Shown here piece by piece: positions 15,520 to 55,125 of a stretch of DNA of 64,000 nt; position 1 is the first letter of the stretch; each line of letters opens with the position of its first letter. Position numbers and translations under genes: made by a program. The notes beneath the pieces were generated by a model. The model saw nothing but the letters and a program-made list of their open reading frames with translations, was not told where the DNA came from and did not search any database. The stretch lies in NCBI GenBank assembly GCA_001599715.1, contig BCHU01000008.1, forward strand, positions 434,001-498,000, in the 5' to 3' direction. This DNA comes from Phaeotremella fagi. Lineage: Eukaryota; Basidiomycota; Tremellomycetes; Tremellales; Phaeotremellaceae.

Positions 15520-16575
15520 CTAAACAACAACATCCTTAACCTTCTTCTTCTAAGAAACAATCAGCTACAAACAACCCCAGACCTTACCTTCTTATCAACA
15601 GCCCCAGCCTCTTCTTCCTTGACCTTTCTCTTCTTCTCCTTCTTGGGTGGTGGAGCGATCTGAGCTAAAGTAGGTGGTGGCACGATAGGTTGAGGAACCG
15701 GTTTGGAGGTTGATTTAGGGAGATCGTCCAGTGAATCATCGGAATCGGAATCGGTGGTGTCGTCTGAATCGCTTTGGTTGGCTGCCGCGGTAGCGGTAGC
15801 GGCCTGATCACAAGATAACGTTTTTAGTGGAAGGTGACGGAATGAGTAGAGTTCAGACTTACCGCTGCTTCAGCAGCTAGTTTCTTGGTGTAAGCTTCTC
15901 CCTCGATGTTGTAGATTCTGTTAGCGTCCAGATAAGCATCTTCATAAACCTATAACCTATAAGTCAAACACCCAAATGTAAGAAAAAAAAATGACTGACC
16001 TTCTTCTGATCAGGAGGTAAAGTCTTCCAACGTTCCGAAGTCTGAGTCAGAATTTCCTGATAAGGAATCTGTTGATTGTTCTTCTTGATCTCAGCTCTGA
16101 TATCGTTTTGGAAAAGGATATAAGCGGAAGGAGGTCTTTTAGGTGCATTAGGATCTTTTGGTTTTTTAACCTTTTTAGGTTTCGGTGTGGTCGTAACGGC
16201 CGGCTTTGGTGGTTCTGGTTGAGAGATGGTATCTGATGGGTTGACTGTACCAGCTGCAGTGGCTGCTGCGATGGCAGCTGCTAAAGTCGCTTTAGTTGGT
16301 TTGGGTGTCTTAGCTTTGGTCGTGGTTGCTGGAGCTGGTTTGGTGGTTAGGAGACTTGGATCGATGTTCGAAGTAGTGACTGTTGTTAAGTTTGAGGGGG
16401 AGAGACGGGTGTAGTCTTCGATAACGGCTACGCAACGTGTCATGGCGGCTGCGATGTCTTTGAAGGAGGTGATCATCTGGTGTGCAAGGGTCAGCAGGGA
16501 GGATGGTGGTTGAGATATGAAAACATTTACCTCCTGCCTTTTAGCCTCCATCTCTTCCCAACTTGGAGCGGACAT
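15520..16575 (-). CDS. HMG-box DNA-binding protein
   Basis: An N-terminal segment MSAPSWEEMEAKRQE joins by splicing to MITSFKDIAAAMTRCVAVIEDYTRLSP. An Ala/Pro/Thr-rich linker follows (APATTTKAKTPKPTKATLAAAIAAATAAG). The HMG box is KKPKDPNAPKRPPSAYILFQNDIRAEIKKNNQQIPYQEILTQTSERWKTLPPDQKK and continues VYEDAYLDANRIYNIEGEAYTKKLAAEAA. The C-terminus is Ser/Asp-rich (SDSDDTTDSDSDDSLDDLP), then basic (PPPKKEKKRKVKEEE..DKKKKKVKDVVV). It is a chromatin architectural protein by family. The box resembles Nhp6/HMGB, but the flanks are longer than Nhp6. The last intron precedes a short terminal exon. The gene is divergent from the LEA2-like gene. Confidence 0.82.
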
Positions 16576-17099
16576 GGTGGTGTGGATATGGATGGTGGTG
16601 AGGTTACTGGGGGTGGGGGTTAGTGGAAGTGTTTCCTCTGCAATGTATGCAGGTGGTTATGATTGTTGAACTTACGATGCCACAGAGGATAGCCACGAAT
16701 GGAATGAGATAAAATTGGATTGATTACCTCAGGGGTTGTCAAAAATAAGGTGTAAGTAAGTTAAGAAAAGAGAGAGTTGTAAGTAAAAAGGAGTTAGTTA
16801 ACAGATTGAACGTTGGTTGATTCACTACTTATTACTAATCCCATTAGTATTTTCATTAGTAATTTTCTCACCATTTTATCCCACTCGTTCAGCCATTTCA
16901 AATAACTAAGTCAAATAATTTACAATTTACTAACTAACCAATTTGATTCCGCTAATGACAGTTGGCACGTGAAGATGAAACGTCAGGAACGAGATAGTGG
17001 CGGTGCTTGGGTTGAGTCTAATTCCAACTTTCTCACTCACTGTCAAAGCGGGATACTTGGATCAACGTTGACCACTCCTCTCTCCTTTATACCCAAAAG
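16576..17099. other. Divergent promoter, HMG-box / LEA2-like genes
   Basis: 524 nt. Contains repeated ttactaatcccattag / attagtaatttt words near 16830-16870. No gene is visible. Confidence 0.4.
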
Positions 17100-18389
17100 A
17101 TGTATTCAATAAATCACCAATCTTCATCAAGACTCAACAACCCTTCAAGACGTTCATACAATCAGACATCATCACCTGAATATCAGCTTCGGGATGATTA
17201 CTATGAACCGGGTGAAATTAGAGATGAAGGTTTTGACGTTGCTGATTTCAATGGTGATTATGGTGTCAGAGGTCTAAGGAATGGTCAGAATGCTAAGTAT
17301 GTCATACTGTAAAATGATTGTGTCACTTAAACTAAACCTACACATAGTTATCGACCCATACCTAATCCATCAACACCGCAATCAAAAAATGGAACTGAAA
17401 ATGGAAGGGAGGAAATGGTCTCAGTCCCAGTCCTAGGACCAGAGTAAGTCTGACCCTCCACCTAATTTATATTTTAATAATGAACCTATCCGTGTAGATG
17501 GGAAAAATCGGAATTACATGATTTATCACGTAGAGGTCAATCCGAACTCAAATCTGAGAAACGTCATCAAACCTGGAGGAAATGGAATAGGGATCAAATC
17601 GGTACTTGTGGAGTTAAGTGGTTAACAAGGAGATTTCTTGTGTTTGTGATCTTCTTTTTCATCGTTGGGTAAGTCAATTTTGGCATTTCTCTGTAGTATC
17701 GCTAAAACCTGGGATTTGATTTAGATTGGCTATCACCCTGTACTTCGTTATTCCACGTCCACCTTCATTTTCTTTTGATCAGAATTCACCGTTTGTCGTC
17801 GATAATTCCACTGTCCAATTCAGTAGGACACCGTCGAATTTCAGTTTTTCAGCTAATCTGAATTTGATTGGTGAGTCGGGTTGACTTTTCATCGCTTATA
17901 CCAACTTTACACTAATTTTTGTAGCTGATACATCGGCGTCATACCTTCCTACACATTTCACATCACTCCAAGCAACGTTATACGATTTCACGACGGACAA
18001 AGCGATAGCGACAGGTGACTATGGGGATCATGTGGTTTCCAAAGGGTCCAATCGGAATATCACGCTTCCCGTGACTTTTGCTTATTCAAGTCTGAATGAC
18101 ACAGATGCTACTTGTAAGTCCATCTCCTCGCTCAAACTGAGAGACGAGATTGACAAGAGCAATCAGGGCTTGATATTTATAATGCTTGCGCACACATATT
18201 CACGGGAACGACACGACCAGGTCAGTTGCATTTACCTTTCCTTGGTATAAGTAGCTGACGGAATGCACAGATCTGAGCTTCAGAGTCGTCCTTCGTTCAA
18301 CTATCGCTGGTTTGGTCACTCATCCTGAAACCTCTGCTGTTATCTCAGGAGTCGTTTGTCCCTTTGAAAGACCTGCTAATGGAGTATGA
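17100..18389 (+). CDS. Single-pass membrane protein with a LEA2-like domain
   Basis: The product has a disordered cytoplasmic N-terminus (MYSINHQSSSRLNNPSRRSYNQ...), a basic stretch WRKWNRDQIGTCGVKWLTRRF, one TM helix FLVFVIFFFIVGLAITLYFVIP, and a lumenal or extracellular domain. That domain reads FSANLNLIADTSASYLPTHFTSLQATLYD, then GSNRNITLPVTFAYSSLNDTDATWLDIYNACAHIFTG, then LSFRVVLRSTIAGLVTHPETSAVISGVVCPFERPANGV. The beta-sandwich pattern with 'ITLPVTF' fits the LEA_2/NDR1-like domain seen in fungal membrane proteins. Several N-glycosylation sites (NST, NFS, NIT, NDT) support a non-cytosolic location. Five or six introns. Function unknown. Confidence 0.7.
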
Positions 18390-18776
18390 AAATGGACATT
18401 TCCTTCCGAGCTCTCGTTATTGTTTTATTCACCATGCAGGATAGTCAGCTCTTCATGCATTTGCATGACCACCAATGGAACGAAGACTTTAATTTGTCAC
18501 GAAGACTTTATTTCCTCATCAACGCTAGAAGTCATCTGTTGAACTGAAAGCCCATCTCGGTGAGATGTTAGACTTAGATTCGCGTTGAAAAAAGTCCCGA
18601 AATGTCGAAGTGTTTACTTTCTTTGGAGCATTCGATCAGATGTCTTCTTCTTAATTCAACCTTTCATCTCCGCTTAATCAGTCGGAGTAAACAATCAGCT
18701 GATGTAACATTTTGAATCACGATCCAACTTATCTATCTCAACCATATCCCTCAACTAGCGGTTTACATATATAGCA
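18390..18776. other. Upstream region of first array gene
   Basis: 387 nt, including the 3' flank of the LEA2-like gene. A TA-rich acatatatagca element directly precedes the ATG at 18777. I see nothing else. Confidence 0.4.
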
Positions 18777-19775
18777 ATGTCAGGAGCCTGGGAATACAAT
18801 CCAAACACTCATTTCTTAGAACCTAGAAATCCACTTTCACCAGGATCGACAGCCTCCGGTTCTGGATCAGGTTCAGGTTCAGGCTCAGTTTCAGGAGTCT
18901 CTGAACCGTCTACATCAAATGTCTATTCACCACACAGGCCACAAACCGAGTCACCTATCTACTCACCACACCAACCACAACCCGAACCATCGTACATGGA
19001 AGACCTCAATGCCTGGAGTCGTTCAAATCAACTGAGAAATTTAACTTTTTCAGATGGATCGAGTTATACCTCTCAAGATTCAGGTTCAACTTCTTTAGCT
19101 TCAAGTTCGACTTTGGTTCCTCCACCCTCTGAAGCTGTTCTTCCACCTTCTGAACCTTTTACTCAAGGTAGAAATCTAGCTATGAGGGGATATCATCAAG
19201 AATTGCTGAAGAATCCTGATCTCGTCAATCAACCAGCAACTCTCGTCACTCAACCACCAGATCTCGAGACTTGGCCATCAACCTTACTACAATATTTCGC
19301 TGATAACCCCAAACCTGAATTTCGAAATCTCATAATCTCAAGTCGACTGTTCAGCGAGATGAACCGAGAAACCGATGAAATCAAGACTACCATCATTCGT
19401 TTCCATAACTGTAAACAACTCCAAAGCGAGATCTCCGGTTATCATTGGTCACATAAATTCATCGATACCTTGATGACCCAAACGACTTTCAGGAAAATGA
19501 GAGAGGTAGCTCAGTTTGATTATCAAGAGATGATGGCGGCGATTAATAATAACGAAATTGAAGATGCTAATCAACAATGGATCATTTGGTTTCAGGAACG
19601 TATGAAGATGTTGACTGGATTTTTCAACGACAAGGGCGGGGAGGTTGATTGTGTTTTTCAAGAATGTGATGATGAACAGTTGTCTTTGGCTAGAGCTTAT
19701 TTGAAATGTGGAGCACCTACTAGGGACGTTAATACGAGATTACAGAGTTGTGAGTATGTTAGGGGTCAACTGTAG
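18777..19775 (+). CDS. Array protein 1: unknown family with HxC / WxxW / C-33-C core
   Basis: The 332-aa product is not a family I recognise. Residues 1-135 are low complexity: a Ser-Gly run (SGSGSGSGSVSG) and two near-copies of a YSPHxPQxE motif. The C-terminal half (about 180-332) is the shared core: H210-N-C212, W224, the helix EDANQQWIIWFQ with W268/W271, C292 in EVDCVF and C325 in LQSCEY. The spacing C292-C325 equals that of array proteins 2 and 3. No signal peptide or TM segment is visible, so it is probably cytosolic or nuclear. No intron is needed, which is unusual in this intron-rich region. It is the most diverged member; the segment RNLAMRGYHQELLKNPD resembles RNRAMMEYLHRANSDP in array protein 2. 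Function unknown. Confidence 0.75.
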   Translation: MSGAWEYNPNTHFLEPRNPLSPGSTASGSGSGSGSGSVSGVSEPSTSNVYSPHRPQTESPIYSPHQPQPEPSYMEDLNAWSRSNQLRNLTFSDGSSYTSQDSGSTSLASSSTLVPPPSEAVLPPSEPFTQGRNLAMRGYHQELLKNPDLVNQPATLVTQPPDLETWPSTLLQYFADNPKPEFRNLIISSRLFSEMNRETDEIKTTIIRFHNCKQLQSEISGYHWSHKFIDTLMTQTTFRKMREVAQFDYQEMMAAINNNEIEDANQQWIIWFQERMKMLTGFFNDKGGEVDCVFQECDDEQLSLARAYLKCGAPTRDVNTRLQSCEYVRGQL

Positions 19776-20182
19776 TCAGGCTGTGAGAATAGATTGTATG
19801 CTGTATGTACAAGTACTGTAAAGTGAATTGTCAAATTGCCTCCGAACGAAAGTGTAGACATTTGGGGGATGCAGCGTTGTTTGAAATGTTTTGTACGTAG
19901 TTGCCCCATTTGGCACCAGAGGATTAGTGCAGATGAGAAGGCGACCGATGACAGTCCCGAGTCTTTCAAATTTCCTTTCAGAGGTATATGTACAGTAGGC
20001 TATCAGCAGACAGCATGGGACCGTATGTAAACCTATGCGTCGGAAGTTGAAATCTCCTACAATCCATTGATTAAGTCGTGCTCGACATGTCTATTTCTAT
20101 TTTTCACCTTATCAAGCAGTTGACCCTCAAGAATACAGCACACTAACATACACAACACACACGCCGTTAACGTAGGAGACTC
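19776..20182. other. Spacer between array genes 1 and 2
   Basis: 407 nt. Short open frames on both strands have no resemblance to the family. The spacer carries a gtatgtacaagtactgta word near 19803. No gene is supported. Confidence 0.4.
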
Positions 20183-21145
20183 ATGTCAGAGCGAGATTTT
20201 TCAACTTGGCGGCAAGAAGGTGGATTCTTGCAACCGGAACGCAGTGTATCTTCAAGTGGTTCCACTCCCTCAGTTCAATCTGTCCAATCACCTTCGTCAG
20301 CTTCTGTTCATTCTGATGGTAGTCAATCTGGGGTTCCTCAAGGTCATAGAAACAGGGCCATGATGGAATATCTCCACCGAGCGAATTCTGATCCAAACAC
20401 GCCAGTTGCTGTTGCTAGTACATCCACATTCGGTGGCCAGGGTTCAACTTCATTGCAGCACACCAATCCTGCGACTGGAAACCTTCCAAGAGAGTATCAA
20501 AGGGCTCTTCCGATTAGAACGAATCCTTTCACAGGAAACACACACACGCCAATCGCTGGTATAGCCACACTCGGGCGTCAAGGGTCAACCTCATTAACAC
20601 CAAACGCTACTACACCCACACTCGGAGGACGGGGCTCAACTTCATTACAACTTACCGATCCTTCAGCTGATGACCTTTCAAGAGGGTCTCCAAGGATTAT
20701 TCCAATTCAAGTCTCCGCTAAGTTAATCGGTATCTACCACGACAACGATACTCACAATCTCTACCCTATCACTGCTCACGATTGCCAATCAATCGATGAC
20801 GAAGTCAATCGATTTACAGCTCACATCTTTTGGGACTGGTTAGAAGCGATATCAGACGTCAAATATTTGGAAAGAGATCAACCTGAGACGTATGCGGTTA
20901 TGCGTACGAGGGCTTCTGAGGAAGATATCGATAGTGCAGATCACGTTTGGAGGGAATGGTTCAATTCTAGAAGAGCTGAATTTATGGGTTTATGGAATAC
21001 TGAAAGACCTTTGGGTTTACCTTTGATTGATTGTACTTTGGTCGAGATGTCTCAGGAGAGGATAGATATGATTACGAGAGAGATCTTGGTGGATGACGAT
21101 GAAATGAGGTTAAAAGATCTTGCACAACAGTGTATTGGTAGATAG
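20183..21145 (+). CDS. Array protein 2: unknown family with HxC / WxxW / C-33-C core
   Basis: The 320-aa, intronless product is of unknown function. Residues 1-165 are Ser/Thr/Gly-rich and contain three copies of a short repeat: FGGQGSTSLQ (83-92), LGRQGSTSLT (130-139) and LGGRGSTSLQ (147-156). The core starts near 172 (RIIPIQVSAKLIGIY) and holds H199-D-C201, then AHIFWDWL (W217), YAVMRTRASEEDIDSADHVWREWF (W256/W259), C284 in LIDCTL and C317 in AQQCIGR. The order and spacings match the neighbouring three genes, so they are paralogues by tandem duplication, although pairwise identity looks low. No TM segment or signal peptide. Confidence 0.77.
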   Translation: MSERDFSTWRQEGGFLQPERSVSSSGSTPSVQSVQSPSSASVHSDGSQSGVPQGHRNRAMMEYLHRANSDPNTPVAVASTSTFGGQGSTSLQHTNPATGNLPREYQRALPIRTNPFTGNTHTPIAGIATLGRQGSTSLTPNATTPTLGGRGSTSLQLTDPSADDLSRGSPRIIPIQVSAKLIGIYHDNDTHNLYPITAHDCQSIDDEVNRFTAHIFWDWLEAISDVKYLERDQPETYAVMRTRASEEDIDSADHVWREWFNSRRAEFMGLWNTERPLGLPLIDCTLVEMSQERIDMITREILVDDDEMRLKDLAQQCIGR

Positions 21146-21435
21146 GCTTCACGGATGGAAGAGTGAGGTGTGAGGTGGGGCGGGGTTATGGCTTTAGGAG
21201 ATTCGGGTTTTGATGTTTAGATTTATTTTTTTTGGCGGACTTATTTTACCTCCGAGGTACTGATTGTTATGGACGGTAGATGTATTCGCTCCATTGTTTT
21301 CGTCAAGTAGTTAACCTGGAAAGTAATCGAAGACTCGCCTGGCTTCAGACCCAGATGTCAGCGTTCCTTTGGTTAAGTGCAATTTCACAATCGAGATGTC
21401 AGTAACTCATTCAATCCTGCCTTCTTGTATGAATT
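21146..21435. other. Spacer between array genes 2 and 3
   Basis: About 290 nt (383 if array gene 3 starts at 21529). It begins with a G-rich gtgaggtgtgaggtggggcggg stretch just after the stop codon, then a T-rich run. No gene seen. Confidence 0.4.
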
Positions 21436-22164
21436 ATGACATCAACTACAAAGAAGCTTTTCCCATCTCCTAAATCGTTTTCTTTTGAGCTTGCTCAACT
21501 TTCCAAGCCCTGCGCAAAAACCATCGTCATGTCCCGATCACCTTTCGACTTTAACGAGGAAGAGTTCATCCTTTGGTTGATAGCCAACGATCGGACTCTC
21601 ACTCAAATTCATTCGGGAGATACTGAACAAGAGATTAATGGTAGAACATCAGAAACGTCTTCGAATGTTACATCCTCGCCAAGACCAACAATCGTCTCCA
21701 ACGACAGTAACACCACAACTTCCACCGACACCCTTCGTATTCTCGTCTCCACAGTCTTGTTGAACGAAGATCAAACGCTTTGTGGTCACACTTGTTGTTT
21801 TACAGCAAGAGATCCCGGAGAAATTCGTAGAGCCCATGAATTTTGGAGTGTCGTGAGAAGAGAGATCACGTTACGACACATGGAAGCCAGTAATGGACCC
21901 CTTTTTGTGAGATTAAGAGAAGTAGTTAGAAGTGGCCAAATTAATAGAGCCAACTCTATTTGGAGACATTGGTTAACGACGGTTATTGGGTACTGGCAGA
22001 GTCAGGTTAATTCTTTGGTACCGGAGGGGGAACGTAAAATCGATTGCGTTCTTACTTCACAGATTAGTTCTTGGGAGGAAGGGGTTCGTCAGCGTTGGGA
22101 GGCGAATCTTGATGATGGTGAATTGGGGTTTTATGTGGGACAATGTCCTTATCCTTATCCTTAG
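21436..22164 (+). CDS. Array protein 3: unknown family with HxC / WxxW / C-33-C core
   Basis: The 242-aa frame is intronless; the start is uncertain. The internal Met at 21529 begins MSRSPFDFNEEEFILWLI, which aligns with ISPFDFLDDDQLVEFF near the N-terminus of array protein 4, so a 211-aa product is equally plausible. The core is TLRILVSTVLL, H118-T-C120, AHEFWSVV (W137), the helix NRANSIWRHWL (W176/W179), C204 in KIDCVL and C237 in VGQCPY. Residue numbers are from the first Met. The Thr/Ser-rich linker (65-98) is much shorter than in array proteins 1 and 2. No TM or signal peptide. Function unknown. Confidence 0.75.
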   Translation: MTSTTKKLFPSPKSFSFELAQLSKPCAKTIVMSRSPFDFNEEEFILWLIANDRTLTQIHSGDTEQEINGRTSETSSNVTSSPRPTIVSNDSNTTTSTDTLRILVSTVLLNEDQTLCGHTCCFTARDPGEIRRAHEFWSVVRREITLRHMEASNGPLFVRLREVVRSGQINRANSIWRHWLTTVIGYWQSQVNSLVPEGERKIDCVLTSQISSWEEGVRQRWEANLDDGELGFYVGQCPYPYP

Positions 22165-22557
22165 TGAAGTTTGTTTCGTAGATAAATAGATTATGAAGTG
22201 TTAAAGTTGCAGCAGGATCAAAGTGGCGAAAATTGTTTTGCCACACCACGGTGACCATTGAAAACAAAAGCCAGGCTATATCATCCTGTCTTCCTTGCGA
22301 GCGCTCGACTTTGACACCACTCTGTGACTTGACAGCTACGCCCGACAATAAATTACCTGACTCGATCGCAAGAAGAGTTTGGCCTTCCTCCGAGACAGCT
22401 GACTGTGAATGTGACAGAAAGGAGGATTTCCCGTCCACTTTCCAATTTCAATCGAAAGCTACAAACTGGAATAGTATATTTCGTTATCTTATACCAAAAC
22501 GACTTCCTTATAGTCTCTCTCATTATCAATAATCTTATACTCTGAACTACAATCAAA
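22165..22557. other. Spacer between array genes 3 and 4
   Basis: 393 nt. Open frames of about 80-125 codons on both strands cross it but lack family resemblance and overlap the array genes. A palindrome-like gcgagcgctcg occurs near 22297. No gene is supported. Confidence 0.4.
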
Positions 22558-23202
22558 ATGTCAGATAACGAACCTGGCAGTGCCAGTACTAAAAACCTCA
22601 TCTCACCTTTCGACTTTCTCGACGACGATCAATTAGTTGAATTCTTTTTTCACAACCACCCAATCCCAGAATCGACTTCGATCACTGGCCCAGATCCAAC
22701 CGCCAGTACCCAGAACTTGGTATCCGGACCAGATTCAACCCCAATAATTTCAATTAGAGTCAGAACGGTTTTGGTAGCTGGGGAAAACGGTAATCTTTAC
22801 GCAGCTTCCGGCCACTCTTGTACATTATACGAGATGGAGGAAGATCAAATCTCACTCGATCTAAACCTAGCTCATGGATTTTGGGACGATCTACGAGGAA
22901 AGTTATCAGTCACTCAAATGGTGACCTACGATCCCTCTTCATACGCCCAATTACGAATGGCTTATTGCACGAGTTTAGAAGATGCTACTCAAGTTTGGCG
23001 AAGTTGGGCAGAAAAACATATTCTGAATAGTCAGAATACTTTTAATTCACAACTTGCGAGACAGGGGAAAAGTATACGTTGTGAGTTGGACGAAAGAGAT
23101 TTAGAATGGGAGAAGGAGGTTAGGAAGCTTGTTGGTCGAGAATATTATGAAATGCGGACGGAGGCAGAGAATTGTTCTTATTACAGATTGAAGTCGGGTT
23201 AA
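22558..23202 (+). CDS. Array protein 4: unknown family with HxC / WxxW / C-31-C core
   Basis: The 214-aa, intronless product is the shortest member. The N-terminus has two copies of a SAST.NL.S motif (8-15 and 49-56) and the SPFDF segment shared with array protein 3. The core is IISIRVRTVLVAG, H86-S-C88, AHGFWDDL (W109), YAQLRMAYCTSLEDATQVWRSWA (W147/W150), C175 in SIRCEL and C206 in AENCSY. The last spacing is 31 rather than 33. No TM or signal peptide. The ATG at 22558 follows an A-rich context (caatcaaaATG), typical of an efficient start. Function unknown; it marks the right end of the array. Confidence 0.76.
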   Translation: MSDNEPGSASTKNLISPFDFLDDDQLVEFFFHNHPIPESTSITGPDPTASTQNLVSGPDSTPIISIRVRTVLVAGENGNLYAASGHSCTLYEMEEDQISLDLNLAHGFWDDLRGKLSVTQMVTYDPSSYAQLRMAYCTSLEDATQVWRSWAEKHILNSQNTFNSQLARQGKSIRCELDERDLEWEKEVRKLVGREYYEMRTEAENCSYYRLKSG

Positions 23203-23716
23203 GATGGAATCATGGACTTGAGTGCGGTACAGTATATATTATACGAGTACATCTTGCAGTAGTTCTTCAGTCAGTTCACTATGAATGTGATGAGTGGTGT
23301 ATAGGGCTTGAATAATCCTTTTGCAGCTACTGGAAAACCTACAGTATTTAACGTACTGTACTGTATACTTTCGCACCCAAAACATCTACTAGGACGTGCA
23401 AGCTGGAAATGCCTTCTTAGTTTTGTGGGTCTTCGATATGAGTAGTTTCTGACAGGAGACAAGAAGGAAGAAAGGAGCTGGACACTTTGACATCACATCA
23501 ATTATCCCTGGAATACCTTGCTCATAGGTCTTTTTAGTCTTTGTTGTGATTGCACTATGCCATCTTTTCAGATGTGGTTTGTCAAGTACAAGTACTTGTA
23601 TGTTGTTCGCCCAAACGCCACCTTCATTTGCCACGAACACAATCGAGTAGATTGTCAACAATTACTCCTCCTTCAAATCCACTCTACATTCTACTTCTTT
23701 ATTTACAACTCTCAAA
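23203..23716. other. Region between the array and the HAD gene
   Basis: 514 nt. Repeated gtacagta / tactgta words occur: ggtacagtatatattatac near 23226 and acgtactgtactgtatac near 23350. They are partly complementary to each other. No coding or RNA gene recognised. Confidence 0.4.
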
Positions 23717-25251
23717 ATGCTAGCAGGACCATCAAGAACGACACAAAGGAGGGTATTGGGGAGGAATCAGAGCTTGATCACTCAGTTGTCAAGATCACCG
23801 AAGACGTTTCATAGACCTTTAAACAGTTAGTACAGGTCCAAATTTTTGAAAATGTAGATTGACCTTTAGCACAGCTCAAACCATACGTTATCCCAATGAA
23901 CTGGCTTTCGCTTTTGATATTGTATGTCCTCCATGTGTTTCTGGAAATGGCACTAATGAGATGACCCCAGGATGGAGTTTTGAAACAAGGTCATCATAAT
24001 GTTTTACCTCAAGCGAAGAGAGTGCTCAATTTGTTAACGGGGAAGAATGGAAGATTTGAAAGGTGTGTACAAGAATCACAATTTGAGTTGTGAGACTGAT
24101 TTGAATTCAGACCTATACCTTTTATGTTAATCACCAATGGAGGTGGCGTACCAGATGCAGAAAGAAGAGCAGCGTTATCATCAGAGTTGGGTGTTGAAGT
24201 GAGTCATTTCATCCCCCCTGACAGGATTTCACACTAAACAACCGACCATCTAGCTAGGACCAAATCAGCTAGTTCAATCACACACTCCACTTCAATCCTA
24301 TGTTCATCAGTATTCCGATAAACCAGTGTTGATCGTCGGAGGACATGGTGATTCATGTAGAAGAGTCGCTGAATCCTATGGCTTGAAGCACGCTTTTCTA
24401 CCTCAGGATGTTATCGCTTGGAATCCATCTATCTGGGATAGAACTACTTTAACGGATGAGGAAGAAAGTTTTGTCAAGGTAGGTATAATTTCCAGATTGT
24501 AGTTACCTAGCTGACTAACTATCAAAGAGAGGTGTCGATTTCAGTCAGACACCTTTACACGCCATCTTCGTTTTACACGATACGCACGATTGGGGGAGGG
24601 ACGCTATGATAATAACAGAACTCTTGTCATCAAAAGGTGGACTGTTGGGTACACAACGTGATAGAAGGGATCAACAGAAAGAGAATGGTGAAATACCTTT
24701 GATATTCAGTAATCCAGATCTGGAATGGCGATCGTATGTCCAAACAGATTATTCTGGCTGATAGTGCAGTGATTATCCATTACCACGTTTCGGAATGGGT
24801 GCTTTCAGATTATCAGTGGAAAGCGTTTATAAAGCTACCACAGGTCTGCCTTTACCTTTTGTTCAATATGGGAAACCTCACAAGGCAACTTATCAATTCG
24901 CCGATGCAATGTTGAGACGGCATTTAGAATCTTTAGGCAGAAATCCTGGTGATCCTCTAAACGTGTAAGTGGTATTCAAACCACATGTGACGATACGCTA
25001 ACAATCGTTATGTAGATACATGATTGGCGGTAAGCTATTTAATCTTTGGTCGGAAATCTAGCTGACATGTCGAAAAAGACAACCCCGAGTCGGATATTGC
25101 AGGCGCTAATGCTCATGGATGGAATTCTATTTTATTGAAAACTGGAGTCTATCAAGGTGGGAAACCTACTCATGAACCTACGACTATTTCTGCGGATGTT
25201 GAGGAAGGTGTGATGTGGGCCATAGAAAGGGAGTTGGGTAGATTGGGTTAG
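23717..25251 (+). CDS. HAD-superfamily class IIA hydrolase, CECR5/YKR070W-like, probably mitochondrial
   Basis: The N-terminus MLAGPSRTTQRRVLGRNQ continues SLITQLSRSPKTFHRPLN. It is Arg/Ser-rich without acids, like a mitochondrial targeting sequence. HAD motif I is split by an intron: FAFDI|DGVLKQGH (DxDG). Motif II is FMLITNGGGVPDAERRAALSSELGV. The cap region includes VLIVGGHGDSCRRVAESYGL and LHAIFVLHDTHDWGRDAMIITELL. Motif III is YGKPHKATYQFADAML, and motif IV is VYMIGDNPESDIAGANAHGWNSILLKTGVY. The late GD/N segment is joined across a short intron. The family is of uncertain substrate (phosphatase-like). All catalytic motifs appear intact. The gene is convergent with the oxidoreductase gene, 118 nt apart. 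Confidence 0.85.
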
Positions 25252-39208: not shown

Positions 39209-41550
39209 TCAAGTTCTCTTCCCACCTCGTCCACCACCACGACCTCCACCCCCACCTCTCCTCTTGAAAGAATTCCCAGGTTGACCACCACTCCTACCAT
39301 AATGTTTCTTCCATTGAGGTTGTTCAATAACAGGTTGACTCGGATAATCACCATATTGTTTTCGAGTCACTATACCAACATCAATACTATCGTACGACTA
39401 AAACTTACACCAAGGGGTTTGGATCGTCTCGTCACTCAAATCTTTCAGTTCTGGTAGCCATAACCTTACATAATCACCTTGGGGATCGTAATCCGCTGCT
39501 TGCTTTATGGGATTGAATTGACGAGATGATCGGGGATCGTTACCGACTCCAGCTGTTTGTTTCTGTTAACGTCTAGAATCCTTTTTGGATGGGTGACTTA
39601 CCTTGATATTGCCTTTAAAGTGTCATAGAGATTAACGCTATTCGATGCAAACTACATTGAACTTACCAATTACCCCAACTTTTATATGTTAGCATATGAA
39701 AACCAAAACAGGGTTCAAACGTCAAACTCACTTTGAACAAGTATCATAATCGATAAGATGAGTTTCGAAAAACTCCGCTCCGATCCTCCAATCGACATAT
39801 CTATGACCAAAGCGTTAATCCTCATCCCCACCACTAAAAGCAGAACATACAAATCCTTGACCAAGAAACTCGCAACATTCTGTCTACCTCTATTACTCAT
39901 CCAACCAGTCTCTCTCAATTCTCGAATGTTGGCATCAACAAATGGAACTCCAGTACGACCTTCACACCATAATCTACCTTTATCGTTTGGATCGTTAAAG
40001 TCTGGTGAATGCCATTCTGAAGGTTTAGGTCTCTCGCTGGCTGGATAGGTTTTCACTTGTTCGGAGAATCCGGTGGGGTTGAATAATGTTGACGAGGGGG
40101 ATTGGGTTTTTGAATTGGAATATTTTAGAGTTGTGTATTGGAAGAAATCTCTCCAAAGTAATTCAAAGATTATCCCTATTTGAATTCAACCATTTAGCTG
40201 TGTACATTTGGCGAGTGATCATCGACCAAACTCACAATAGACATTATTGTAGTCTTCCTTATTCCTACCGACGACGTGTAACAATTGTCCAACCCTCCAA
40301 CCAGCCTCTCTAGCAGATAACGAACCTAGACTCAACCAAACCGAAAATTTCGTACTGAACCCTTCACCCACTAAACCGTTTCGAGTAGATTTGTAAGATT
40401 TAGCTTTGCTACCACCAACCCATTTATCACTTTCTTCATGTCCGACATAATCTTCCAATCTACTTAGAGCATGTTCTTCACCTCCAAAGAATGGAATTGC
40501 GGAATTAGGATGAAGTTTGGGTGGAATTGATTCGGTAATCGTTGATGACCATCCGCCTATCGGTGGATTATCCAAAATCGGTTTAACGAGTTTCGAGTAT
40601 AATTTATCGACGGTTTCGACATCTTTGTTGATCCACCCACCTTTTCCGTTCTCGATTTTGGATTGATCAGAAGATACTTTTGGATATGGTTTGAGATTCT
40701 TCCCATCTTTCCCAACAGATACAACAATCTCTTGAACGTCCTTCCCATTAGTTCTCCATTTAGCAGTCTGCAAAGGAGCTTCCAACATACCACCCCCAAG
40801 TCCCAATCCCAAACCTTCAACAGATTTCCGAAAGCTGGTATAAACGTCAGGCGTCGATGTTCGAGGATCAAAAGGTAATTTCCCGCTTGGAACAAGTGTT
40901 TTCGAATCGTTCAGATGTAATTTAACATCAACAAGATTGTTTTTTAAATTGTTGATCATTGTTTTCTCTTCAACTGTATATTCATCTTGTGCCCAAACTC
41001 CTTCAATGGTGTTACCCTCTTTAGAGAGTTGCGAGATCAAGTTCGGTAGTAGGATTTCCGGTTTACCATATCCTATAAGTAGGTCTCCGCCTGATCTTCT
41101 GTATGTATCGCGTAACGAGTACACTGATTGTATAAGATGTAACAGTCTGTGTGGAGAGGTTCTAGTGAATTTACCAACTCGTGAAATAGGTGTGTTTTGT
41201 GATTTGGACGGTCGAGGATGATTTGGATTTTGGGGTATATCGTCATCCTCTGTAGAATCGGATTGGTTTTGAAGAGTTGATGAAATATTGTCTAGAGGTG
41301 TCAAATCAATCTGTCTCTGATCAAATATATAGATCGGTAGAAAATGTGTTACATTCTTCGATATTCTACTTGATTCATCGTGTGATAAAGAAAGTGAAGG
41401 TGAATCGTGAACTCTCAAGTCCAGAGTGTGGAGATGGATGAAGATGTTGTTCTTTGACATTGTTGTTGTTGCAATCGTACGACGGTAATGATGTTGAGAA
41501 TGAGTTTTCAATTTTCCAAAGATCATTCGTTGGAATGTAAATCGATTCAA
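39209..41550 (-). CDS. Cryptochrome DASH (CRY-DASH), photolyase family, with RGG tail
   Basis: The N-terminal photolyase domain begins [22 protein letters not shown], with [22 protein letters not shown] and [11 protein letters not shown] (antenna-binding alpha/beta domain). The FAD domain includes [155 protein letters not shown]. These fit CRY-DASH (blue-light flavoprotein, single-strand photolyase or signalling). The C-terminus is a basic Gly-rich [21 protein letters not shown] tail, suggesting RNA binding. An N-terminal extension of 30 residues before MSKNN could target mitochondria. At least four introns lie in the C-terminal third. Confidence 0.9.
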
Positions 41551-42069
41551 GAGATGGAAATGGTAAACTTTTCATTTTTCACGATCGGATTACGAAAATC
41601 AAAACCCAGAATGTAACGAAACGTCAGTCGCGTAAGTTTAGGCAAACGATCGGCTCAACCCTTAAAATGTAATGTTGGAAGCAGAGGAAGACATTGCGGA
41701 TTGAGCTGCGATTGGCATAGCTTCAAGAGAACTGCGAATTTAGATAAGATAGTGAATGAAATAGATTAACACAACCATAACACTCTCTTGTATGCGACCA
41801 CATCATCAATCTAGACCTACATGAATGGTCAAAATGAAAATATTCTTCCATTTCCACAACATCAGTGATGACGTCAATGTTATCTTAGTTAGCTCTAGTT
41901 CCTGGCGGATGTCTGTGCGTAAGGTGGATGGTAGGTCCAGCAAAGTGATGCGGTATAGTATAGTTTGGAGCTACTATTAATAAATCTATAAGAGTCAGAA
42001 GAATCTGTGAGAATTATCAAAGAATGAAGAGAACATCTCTTCCTCGCCACTGAAACCCAAATTATCACC
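41551..42069. other. Divergent promoter, CRY-DASH / DUF7330 genes
   Basis: 519 nt; includes gcggtatagtatagtttgg near 41951 and AT-rich ctattaataaatctataagag near 41974, probably core promoter of the DUF7330 gene. No gene seen. Confidence 0.45.
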
Positions 42070-54937: not shown

Positions 54938-55125
54938 CGATGCCTTGACAACAGAAGCCGGTAGTGAAGGGGCAACGTCATCTTGTGACCCATGAAGCAA
55001 GCTACAGAGGGGTACACAGGCCTGAAAAATGATATGAGAATGATCACCCGTAGGTGAGTTATACTTCTCACAGTATAAAGAACAGATACTACACATGATC
55101 TTAGCCAAGAGAGGCCAGAGAGGAT
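54938..55125 (-). ncRNA. U2 spliceosomal snRNA
   Basis: On the minus strand the transcript begins around 55125 with aucCUCUCUGGCC, then CUUGGCUAAGAUC, then GUGUAGUAUCUGUUCUU, which is the universally conserved U2 5' domain including GUAGUA that pairs with the intron branch site. Stem IIa is uuauacu/aguauaa (55059-55078) and stem IIb ucacc-uacg-ggtga (55044-55057). An Sm-like AUUUUUCAG follows (55021-55030), then the 3' stem-loops. A gaugacguug / caaggcauc pairing suggests a 3' end near 54938, so about 188 nt, as in human U2. Ends are estimates (a few nt at the 5' end, up to 10-15 nt at the 3' end). The 3' half is less conserved. Confidence 0.93.

What the first reader, a model, noticed from the sequence alone, without database searches (positions are those of the whole stretch)
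18777..23202. Tandem array of four intronless genes of an unrecognised protein family
Four consecutive same-strand genes encode proteins of 332, 320, 242 and 214 aa, with spacers of about 290-410 nt. All are intronless, whereas nearly every other gene in the window has several introns. They share a C-terminal core with conserved order and spacing but little overall identity, so this is an old, fast-diverging tandem expansion. Nothing in them matches a family I know. Intronless, fast-evolving clusters often have lineage-specific roles (stress, conflict, self/non-self). A retrogene origin followed by tandem duplication would also explain the lack of introns.
Basis: partly seen in the sequence, partly recalled or inferred. 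Interest (0 to 1): 0.88.

Follow-up and report, generated by a model that had tools for sequence, protein, structure and literature searches.

The report
Four intronless orphan genes in tandem
Four side-by-side genes without introns, in a fungus whose neighbouring genes have several introns each, encode old, highly diverged copies of one protein family that the libraries searched here do not recognise and whose predicted shape closely matches no solved structure found.

Summary
Four same-strand open frames (18777-23202) are homologous: profiles of any three find the fourth at E 7e-18 to 3e-10, against 0.3 for the best of 1000 shuffles each. One correction: gene 3 more likely starts at 21529 (211 aa), since all four then begin ATG-TC. 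Each protein is a Ser/Thr/Pro/Gly-rich tail plus a core of about 150 residues with 11 invariant positions, 5 of them His or Cys (realigned shuffles: mean 2, at most 6). AlphaFold predicts the core confidently (pLDDT 89.7, pTM 0.84); Foldseek finds no significant match. No match reached a family threshold. The protein database gave none, although it holds ten Kwoniella photolyases (control). In the 22.6 Mb genome only this locus was found. Models elsewhere in the window average 4.0 introns; the array has no credible one. My reading: an old orphan family, probably intracellular binding or adaptor proteins with a His/Cys (perhaps zinc) site; the function is inference. Retrogene and self/non-self ideas remain open. 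No transcript or orthologue could be examined.

The parts
18777..19775 (+). Gene 1, 332 aa: Ser/Gly/Pro-rich tail (about residues 1-165) plus core domain; the most diverged member
   Evidence: ORF; left-out profile E 2.9e-10; invariants
20183..21145 (+). Gene 2, 320 aa: tail with internal repeats plus core domain; its only three Cys are the three invariant ones
   Evidence: ORF; E 1.2e-13 and Cys count; core model pLDDT 89.7
20405..20707 (+). Internal repeats in the tail of gene 2: 102-nt unit twice (20414-20515, 20606-20707, 75% identical) and 51-nt unit three times (GSTSL-type peptides)
21529..22164 (+). Gene 3, 211 aa from the preferred start (ATG-TCC); the longer 242-aa frame from 21436 is open too
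   Evidence: E 2.3e-14
22558..23202 (+). Gene 4, 214 aa: short tail plus core domain
   Evidence: ORF; E 7.1e-18; model
19311..19772 (+). Core domain of gene 1
   Evidence: alignment A4
20675..21142 (+). Core domain of gene 2
   Evidence: alignment A4; AlphaFold model
21712..22161 (+). Core domain of gene 3
   Evidence: alignment A4
22732..23199 (+). Core domain of gene 4
   Evidence: alignment A4; AlphaFold model
17100..18159 (+). Left neighbour (context, not part of the family): model of 266 aa with one hydrophobic stretch seen by eye, 5 predicted introns; its 3' end is uncertain
23717..25251 (+). Right neighbour (context): model of 369 aa, 8 predicted introns; looks like a HAD-superfamily hydrolase by its DIDGVL motif, recognised from memory, no family search run

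Best explanation
Shown: the array is one protein family of old tandem copies with uninterrupted frames, found at a single locus in this genome. Predicted: each member is a disordered tail joined to a compact domain (two strands, four helices of which the last is long, one strand, then two or three short helices). Inferred: one ancestor without introns was duplicated in tandem, so that all four inherited the intronless state. Inferred: the proteins are soluble and intracellular and act as binding or adaptor/regulatory proteins, in which the domain, stabilised by or presenting His/Cys residues (H-x-C at the end of strand 2, H in helix 1, C in strand 3, C near the C terminus; possibly with zinc), binds a partner, while the variable Ser/Thr-rich tail is a flexible, perhaps phosphorylated, linker. 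The copies have diverged in partner or timing.
For: Homology. Eleven invariant columns, 5 of them H or C; 100 shuffles that were realigned give a mean of 2.0 and at most 6 invariant columns, and at most 1 H or C. The three Cys of gene 2 are all invariant. Similar topology predicted for two members: (same four sequences in both). Tails 50-58% S/T/P/G/N/Q against 25-35% in the cores; no 19-residue window above 0.75 on the Kyte-Doolittle scale, so no transmembrane segment or obvious signal peptide. Codon position 2 is the best conserved in 6 of 6 pairs, and position 3 agrees at 31-41% where base composition alone gives 27%. Only this locus found in the genome. No sense-strand intron candidate scoring 4 or more in 18400-23202 (best 3.3); the right neighbour reaches 6.2.
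Against: No function, metal, partner or expression was measured. Enzyme activity is not excluded. Position 1 exceeds position 3 in only 2 of 6 pairs (2 ties, 2 lower). My splice score also finds strong candidates (to 5.8) on the antisense strand of the array, so it is crude. UTR introns are not excluded.
Confidence: 0.45

Rival explanations
1. Retrogene: a spliced mRNA of an ordinary intron-bearing gene was copied back into the genome, then duplicated in tandem and diverged beyond recognition.
For: All four lack credible introns in an intron-rich setting; duplicates inherit the intronless state.
Against: No intron-bearing parent was found in the genome, also not with consensus pieces at E up to 10, though short exons could be missed. 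No run of 9 or more A or T in 18000-24000 and no long flanking repeats in 17000-24500, though such marks would be gone at this age.
Confidence: 0.25
2. Captured or domesticated gene of a virus, transposon or bacterium, intronless from the start.
For: Intronless, orphan, single locus.
Against: No relative in viral contigs (one peptide pattern), in prokaryote genomes (close relatives of gene 4 only), in PHROGs or among viral structures (best E 0.079). Inverted repeats in 17000-24500 do not exceed 28-nt arms at 75%. G+C of the genes is 43-46%, within the window's 37-48%.
Confidence: 0.15
3. Conflict or self/non-self family (allorecognition, antiviral), diversifying by tandem duplication.
For: Low identity, variable repeat-bearing tails, tandem arrangement.
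Against: No match to PADLOC models (those are anti-phage) and no recognised domain. Old duplications and strict invariants fit a stable function as well. No population data.
Confidence: 0.12
4. Enzyme using the invariant His and Cys (for example a thiol hydrolase).
Confidence: 0.1
5. Not real genes: chance or decayed frames.
For: No transcript data.
Against: Four homologous frames without stops although their third codon positions are near saturation, each with a start in a similar ATG-TC context.
Confidence: 0.02

Closest known systems
RNase J C-terminal domain (PDB 7pcr, 3zq4 and others)
   Different: Below the tool's guide level of 8; no sequence link found; it is one part of a large nuclease; the best Foldseek E of either model to any PDB chain is 0.31.
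DUF4047 (PF13256)
   Same: Weak match: gene 1, 15.9 bits, E 0.014; one of the four cores, E 0.003 (member not named there, presumably gene 1).
   Different: Below the curated cut-off of 22.1 bits; 1 of 4 members in both calls.
RbcX (PDB 4gr2, Arabidopsis)
   Different: Not significant; as I recall an all-helical chloroplast assembly chaperone.
The 35 expressed intronless genes of Cryptococcus neoformans var. grubii (review PMC5851062, passages seen)
   Same: Intronless genes in an intron-rich tremellomycete.
   Different: The identity of those 35 genes was not examined; I do not know whether any is related.
Lineage-restricted tandem gene families (general kind, from knowledge)
   Same: Tandem copies, low identity, no recognised domain.
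   Different: All four intronless in a group where that is rare.

Membership tests
One homologous family (the four genes) | Each member is found by a profile of the other three | tested here: met
   4 of 4, E 7.1e-18 to 2.9e-10
One homologous family (the four genes) | Shared fold | tested here: inconclusive
   Similar topology for the gene 2 core and gene 4, but both models used the same four sequences; genes 1 and 3 were not predicted
Intronless genes | Coding region without introns | tested here: inconclusive
   Uninterrupted frames, no strong sense splice candidates, the two weak ones would delete invariant residues; no RNA data
Retrogene | Intron-bearing parent gene | tested here: inconclusive
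   None found in the genome at E up to 10 with consensus pieces; a six-frame search could miss short exons
DUF4047 (PF13256) | Whole-protein score above the curated cut-off | tested here: not met
   15.9 against 22.1 bits, 1 of 4 members
RNase J C-terminal domain fold | Significant structural similarity | tested here: inconclusive
RbcX | Significant profile match to the solved chain | tested here: not met
   E 0.15 and 0.022
Mobile element or viral gene | Relatives in viruses, or terminal repeats | tested here: inconclusive
   None found, but these searches reach mainly close relatives
Zinc-binding protein | Ligands close together in space; metal bound | not testable with these tools
   Model coordinates not given; only the invariance of H, C, H, C, C is known
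Self/non-self or immune family | Diversifying selection or presence/absence between strains | not testable with these tools
   No relatives of this genome are held

The most novel reading that the evidence does not exclude
A previously unclassified protein fold and family, confined to a narrow group of Tremellomycetes, that arose as an intronless gene and spread by tandem duplication while escaping the intron dependence of gene expression known in Cryptococcus: a natural test case of how intronless genes are expressed in an intron-dependent genome.
Probability: 0.25. Interest if true: 0.65.

Novelty: new variant of a known kind. Interest (0 to 1): 0.45.

Why it matters
In C. neoformans more than 99% of genes carry introns, about 5 each (passage in PMC5006051), only 35 expressed genes of var. 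grubii are reported intronless (passage in PMC5851062), and removing introns often strongly lowers expression, depending on the gene (passages in PMC3744415 and PMC5851062). If the same holds in this related fungus, four neighbouring intronless genes kept over a long time must either be expressed by a route that does not need introns or be kept low. The family also offers a confidently predicted domain with no clear match among solved structures, and so a concrete target for structure work.

Tried and rejected
Family libraries: Pfam with the four whole proteins and the four cores, NCBIfam with alignment A1, PHROGs with A2, PADLOC with A4. Nothing reached a cut-off; the PHROG spanin match (E 0.023, 1 of 4) is taken as chance. 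Protein database: the alignment of all four (the 7990 candidates sharing most words were scored, none at E 0.01 or better; the low-complexity tails may have crowded that list) and gene 4 alone (240 candidates, none at E 1 or better). Genes 1, 2 and 3 were not searched singly, because the third and last search went to the photolyase control. Distant relatives that share few 5-residue words would be missed. Own genome: a match of gene 1 at C2:1798803-1799090 (E 0.54) lies mostly in the tail and is taken as chance; the tool scores only its best candidates, so counts are lower bounds. Foldseek and VIA lists: no significant match; ribosome-binding factor A, Prp8 RNase H-like, foamy virus, stomatin and organic-hydroperoxide/redox entries are at noise level, and families not listed are not excluded. 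The quartet tree favours (1,2),(3,4) but rejects neither other order (AU p 0.83, 0.17, 0.17). Similarity of the tails of genes 1 and 2 is weak (2 of 500 shuffles reach it). My first attempts to splice the neighbours by hand gave no open model; the gene finder replaced them. Its scores were set by me and not calibrated on RNA. The row shuffles were not realigned and are too lenient; one search replaces them. A product of frequencies for four independent intronless genes (printed) is the wrong model for duplicates and is not used. Papers: listings; passages of PMC11185503, PMC5006051, PMC5851062, PMC3744415, PMC8022950; the first and the last gave nothing used here. The family has no name to search by, so I make no claim that it is absent from print.
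Full report
WHAT IS THERE. The window lies in a 22.6 Mb genome of 24 contigs (C8:434001-498000). In gene 3 the start at 21529 is preferred: then all four genes begin ATG-TC(A/C), the protein is 211 aa, and the three spacers are 407, 383 and 393 nt, with stop codons in every frame. Such spacers are also far longer than the introns predicted in the two neighbours (44-75 nt), so the four frames are not exons of one gene.

THE FOUR ARE ONE FAMILY. Leave-one-out profiles of the core find the missing member at E 7.1e-18 (gene 4), 2.3e-14 (gene 3), 1.2e-13 (gene 2) and 2.9e-10 (gene 1); the best of 1000 shuffles in each test lies between 0.3 and 1.2. By direct pairwise alignment 5 of 6 pairs beat all 500 shuffles; genes 1 and 3 do not (6 of 500 reach their score). 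Core identities are 15-26%. Eleven columns are invariant: in gene 4 numbering L72, H86, C88, H106, F108, A143, W147, W150, N163, C175, C206. In 100 shuffles that were realigned the mean is 2.0 invariant columns and the largest 6; H or C makes up at most 1 of them, against 5 in the real cores. The four cores together hold only 15 His and 17 Cys, of which 8 and 12 sit in invariant columns.

INTRONS. A two-strand gene finder that I wrote, trained on long frames with the array left out, gives 32 models outside the array with a mean of 4.0 introns; 3 of 32 have none: one whose HMG-box match ends short at the exon end, one that I suspect is a piece of a larger gene, and one of 53 aa. The left neighbour model has 5 introns and the right one 8. 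In the array, genes 2 and 4 get none. Genes 1 and 3 get one weak in-frame candidate each, at 19600-19662 and 21907-21999, which would delete invariant N and C, and invariant A, W and W, respectively; I reject them on that ground. No sense-strand candidate in 18400-23202 reaches a score of 4 (best 3.3, in a spacer), while the right neighbour reaches 6.2; but only 3 candidates of the left neighbour reach 4, and the antisense strand of the array reaches 5.8, so the score is only a guide. UTR introns cannot be excluded.

AGE AND SELECTION. Third codon positions agree at 31-41% between copies, where base composition alone would give 27%, so silent sites are near saturation. Second positions are the best conserved in 6 of 6 pairs; first positions exceed third in 2 of 6, tie in 2 and fall below in 2. 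Spacers share nothing beyond words of 9-13 bases, and a DNA search of the genome finds only the array itself. So the duplications are old and the frames have stayed open. In contrast, the tail of gene 2 holds younger internal repeats, 75% identical in DNA. The best order of the four is (1,2),(3,4), not significantly; the tails agree with it by eye: long GSTSL-bearing tails in 1 and 2, SPFDF near the start in 3 and 4. Without orthologues, 'fast-evolving' cannot be told from 'old'.

WHERE ELSE. In the own genome gene 4 (E up to 0.001) and genes 1-3 (E up to 1) find only array members, apart from one E 0.54 match mostly in the tail of gene 1. Hand-made consensus cores find all four and nothing else at E up to 5 and 10; a piece of gene 4 finds 3 of the 4 array members and nothing else at E up to 10. 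The tool scores only its best candidates. The protein database gives no hit for the alignment or for gene 4. As a control, a photolyase exon of the window found 73 proteins, among them ten named as Kwoniella and one each of Tremella, Kockovaella, Naematelia and Cryptotrichosporon (named ones 46-56% identical), and many unnamed metagenome proteins, up to 62%. So Tremellomycetes are in the database, and intronless genes conserved at that level should have been found; much more diverged relatives could still be missed. In a tree of 20 of those 73 proteins with the window, the ten Kwoniella rows form a clade (100/98) that excludes the window, whose own position is weak. Viral contigs (one peptide pattern) and prokaryote genomes (gene 4) gave no relative.

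HOW IT MAY WORK (inference). No transmembrane or signal-like segment suggests soluble, intracellular proteins. The tails are 50-58% S/T/P/G/N/Q. The invariant His and Cys residues suggest a metal or structural site. By strand alternation, read by eye, C175 points to the hydrophobic side of strand 3 and H86/C88 to the other side of strand 2, so perhaps only some of them form a site. I take binding or adaptor function as likeliest, at moderate confidence; an enzyme is not excluded.

CONTEXT IN PRINT. Passages read: in C. neoformans more than 99% of genes have introns, about 5 each (PMC5006051); only 35 expressed genes of var. grubii are intronless (PMC5851062); intronless alleles are often poorly expressed, with Pab2 and exosome nucleases involved in their decay, though this varies by gene (PMC3744415). 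Whether this fungus obeys the same rule is unknown.

VERDICT. Interest is moderate: the unusual gene structure in this lineage and the confidently predicted, unmatched domain make it worth a follow-up, but orphan tandem families are common and no function is shown.

Noticed in passing
window 54940-55125 (-): U2 spliceosomal RNA gene, full length, 103 bits.
   Followed up: no
window 39209-41575 (-): Photolyase/cryptochrome gene model; several named relatives are called cryptochrome DASH. Its long exon was used as control and to place the organism.
   Followed up: partly
window 19600-19662 and 21907-21999 (+): Weak in-frame intron-like stretches inside genes 1 and 3 that would remove part of the most conserved segment; regulated splicing there could switch the domain off. 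Speculation without RNA data.
   Followed up: partly
window 20405-20707 (+): Young internal repeats coding GSTSL-type peptides in the tail of the otherwise old gene 2.
   Followed up: partly
window 15964-16578 (-): HMG-box protein gene (PF00505).
   Followed up: no
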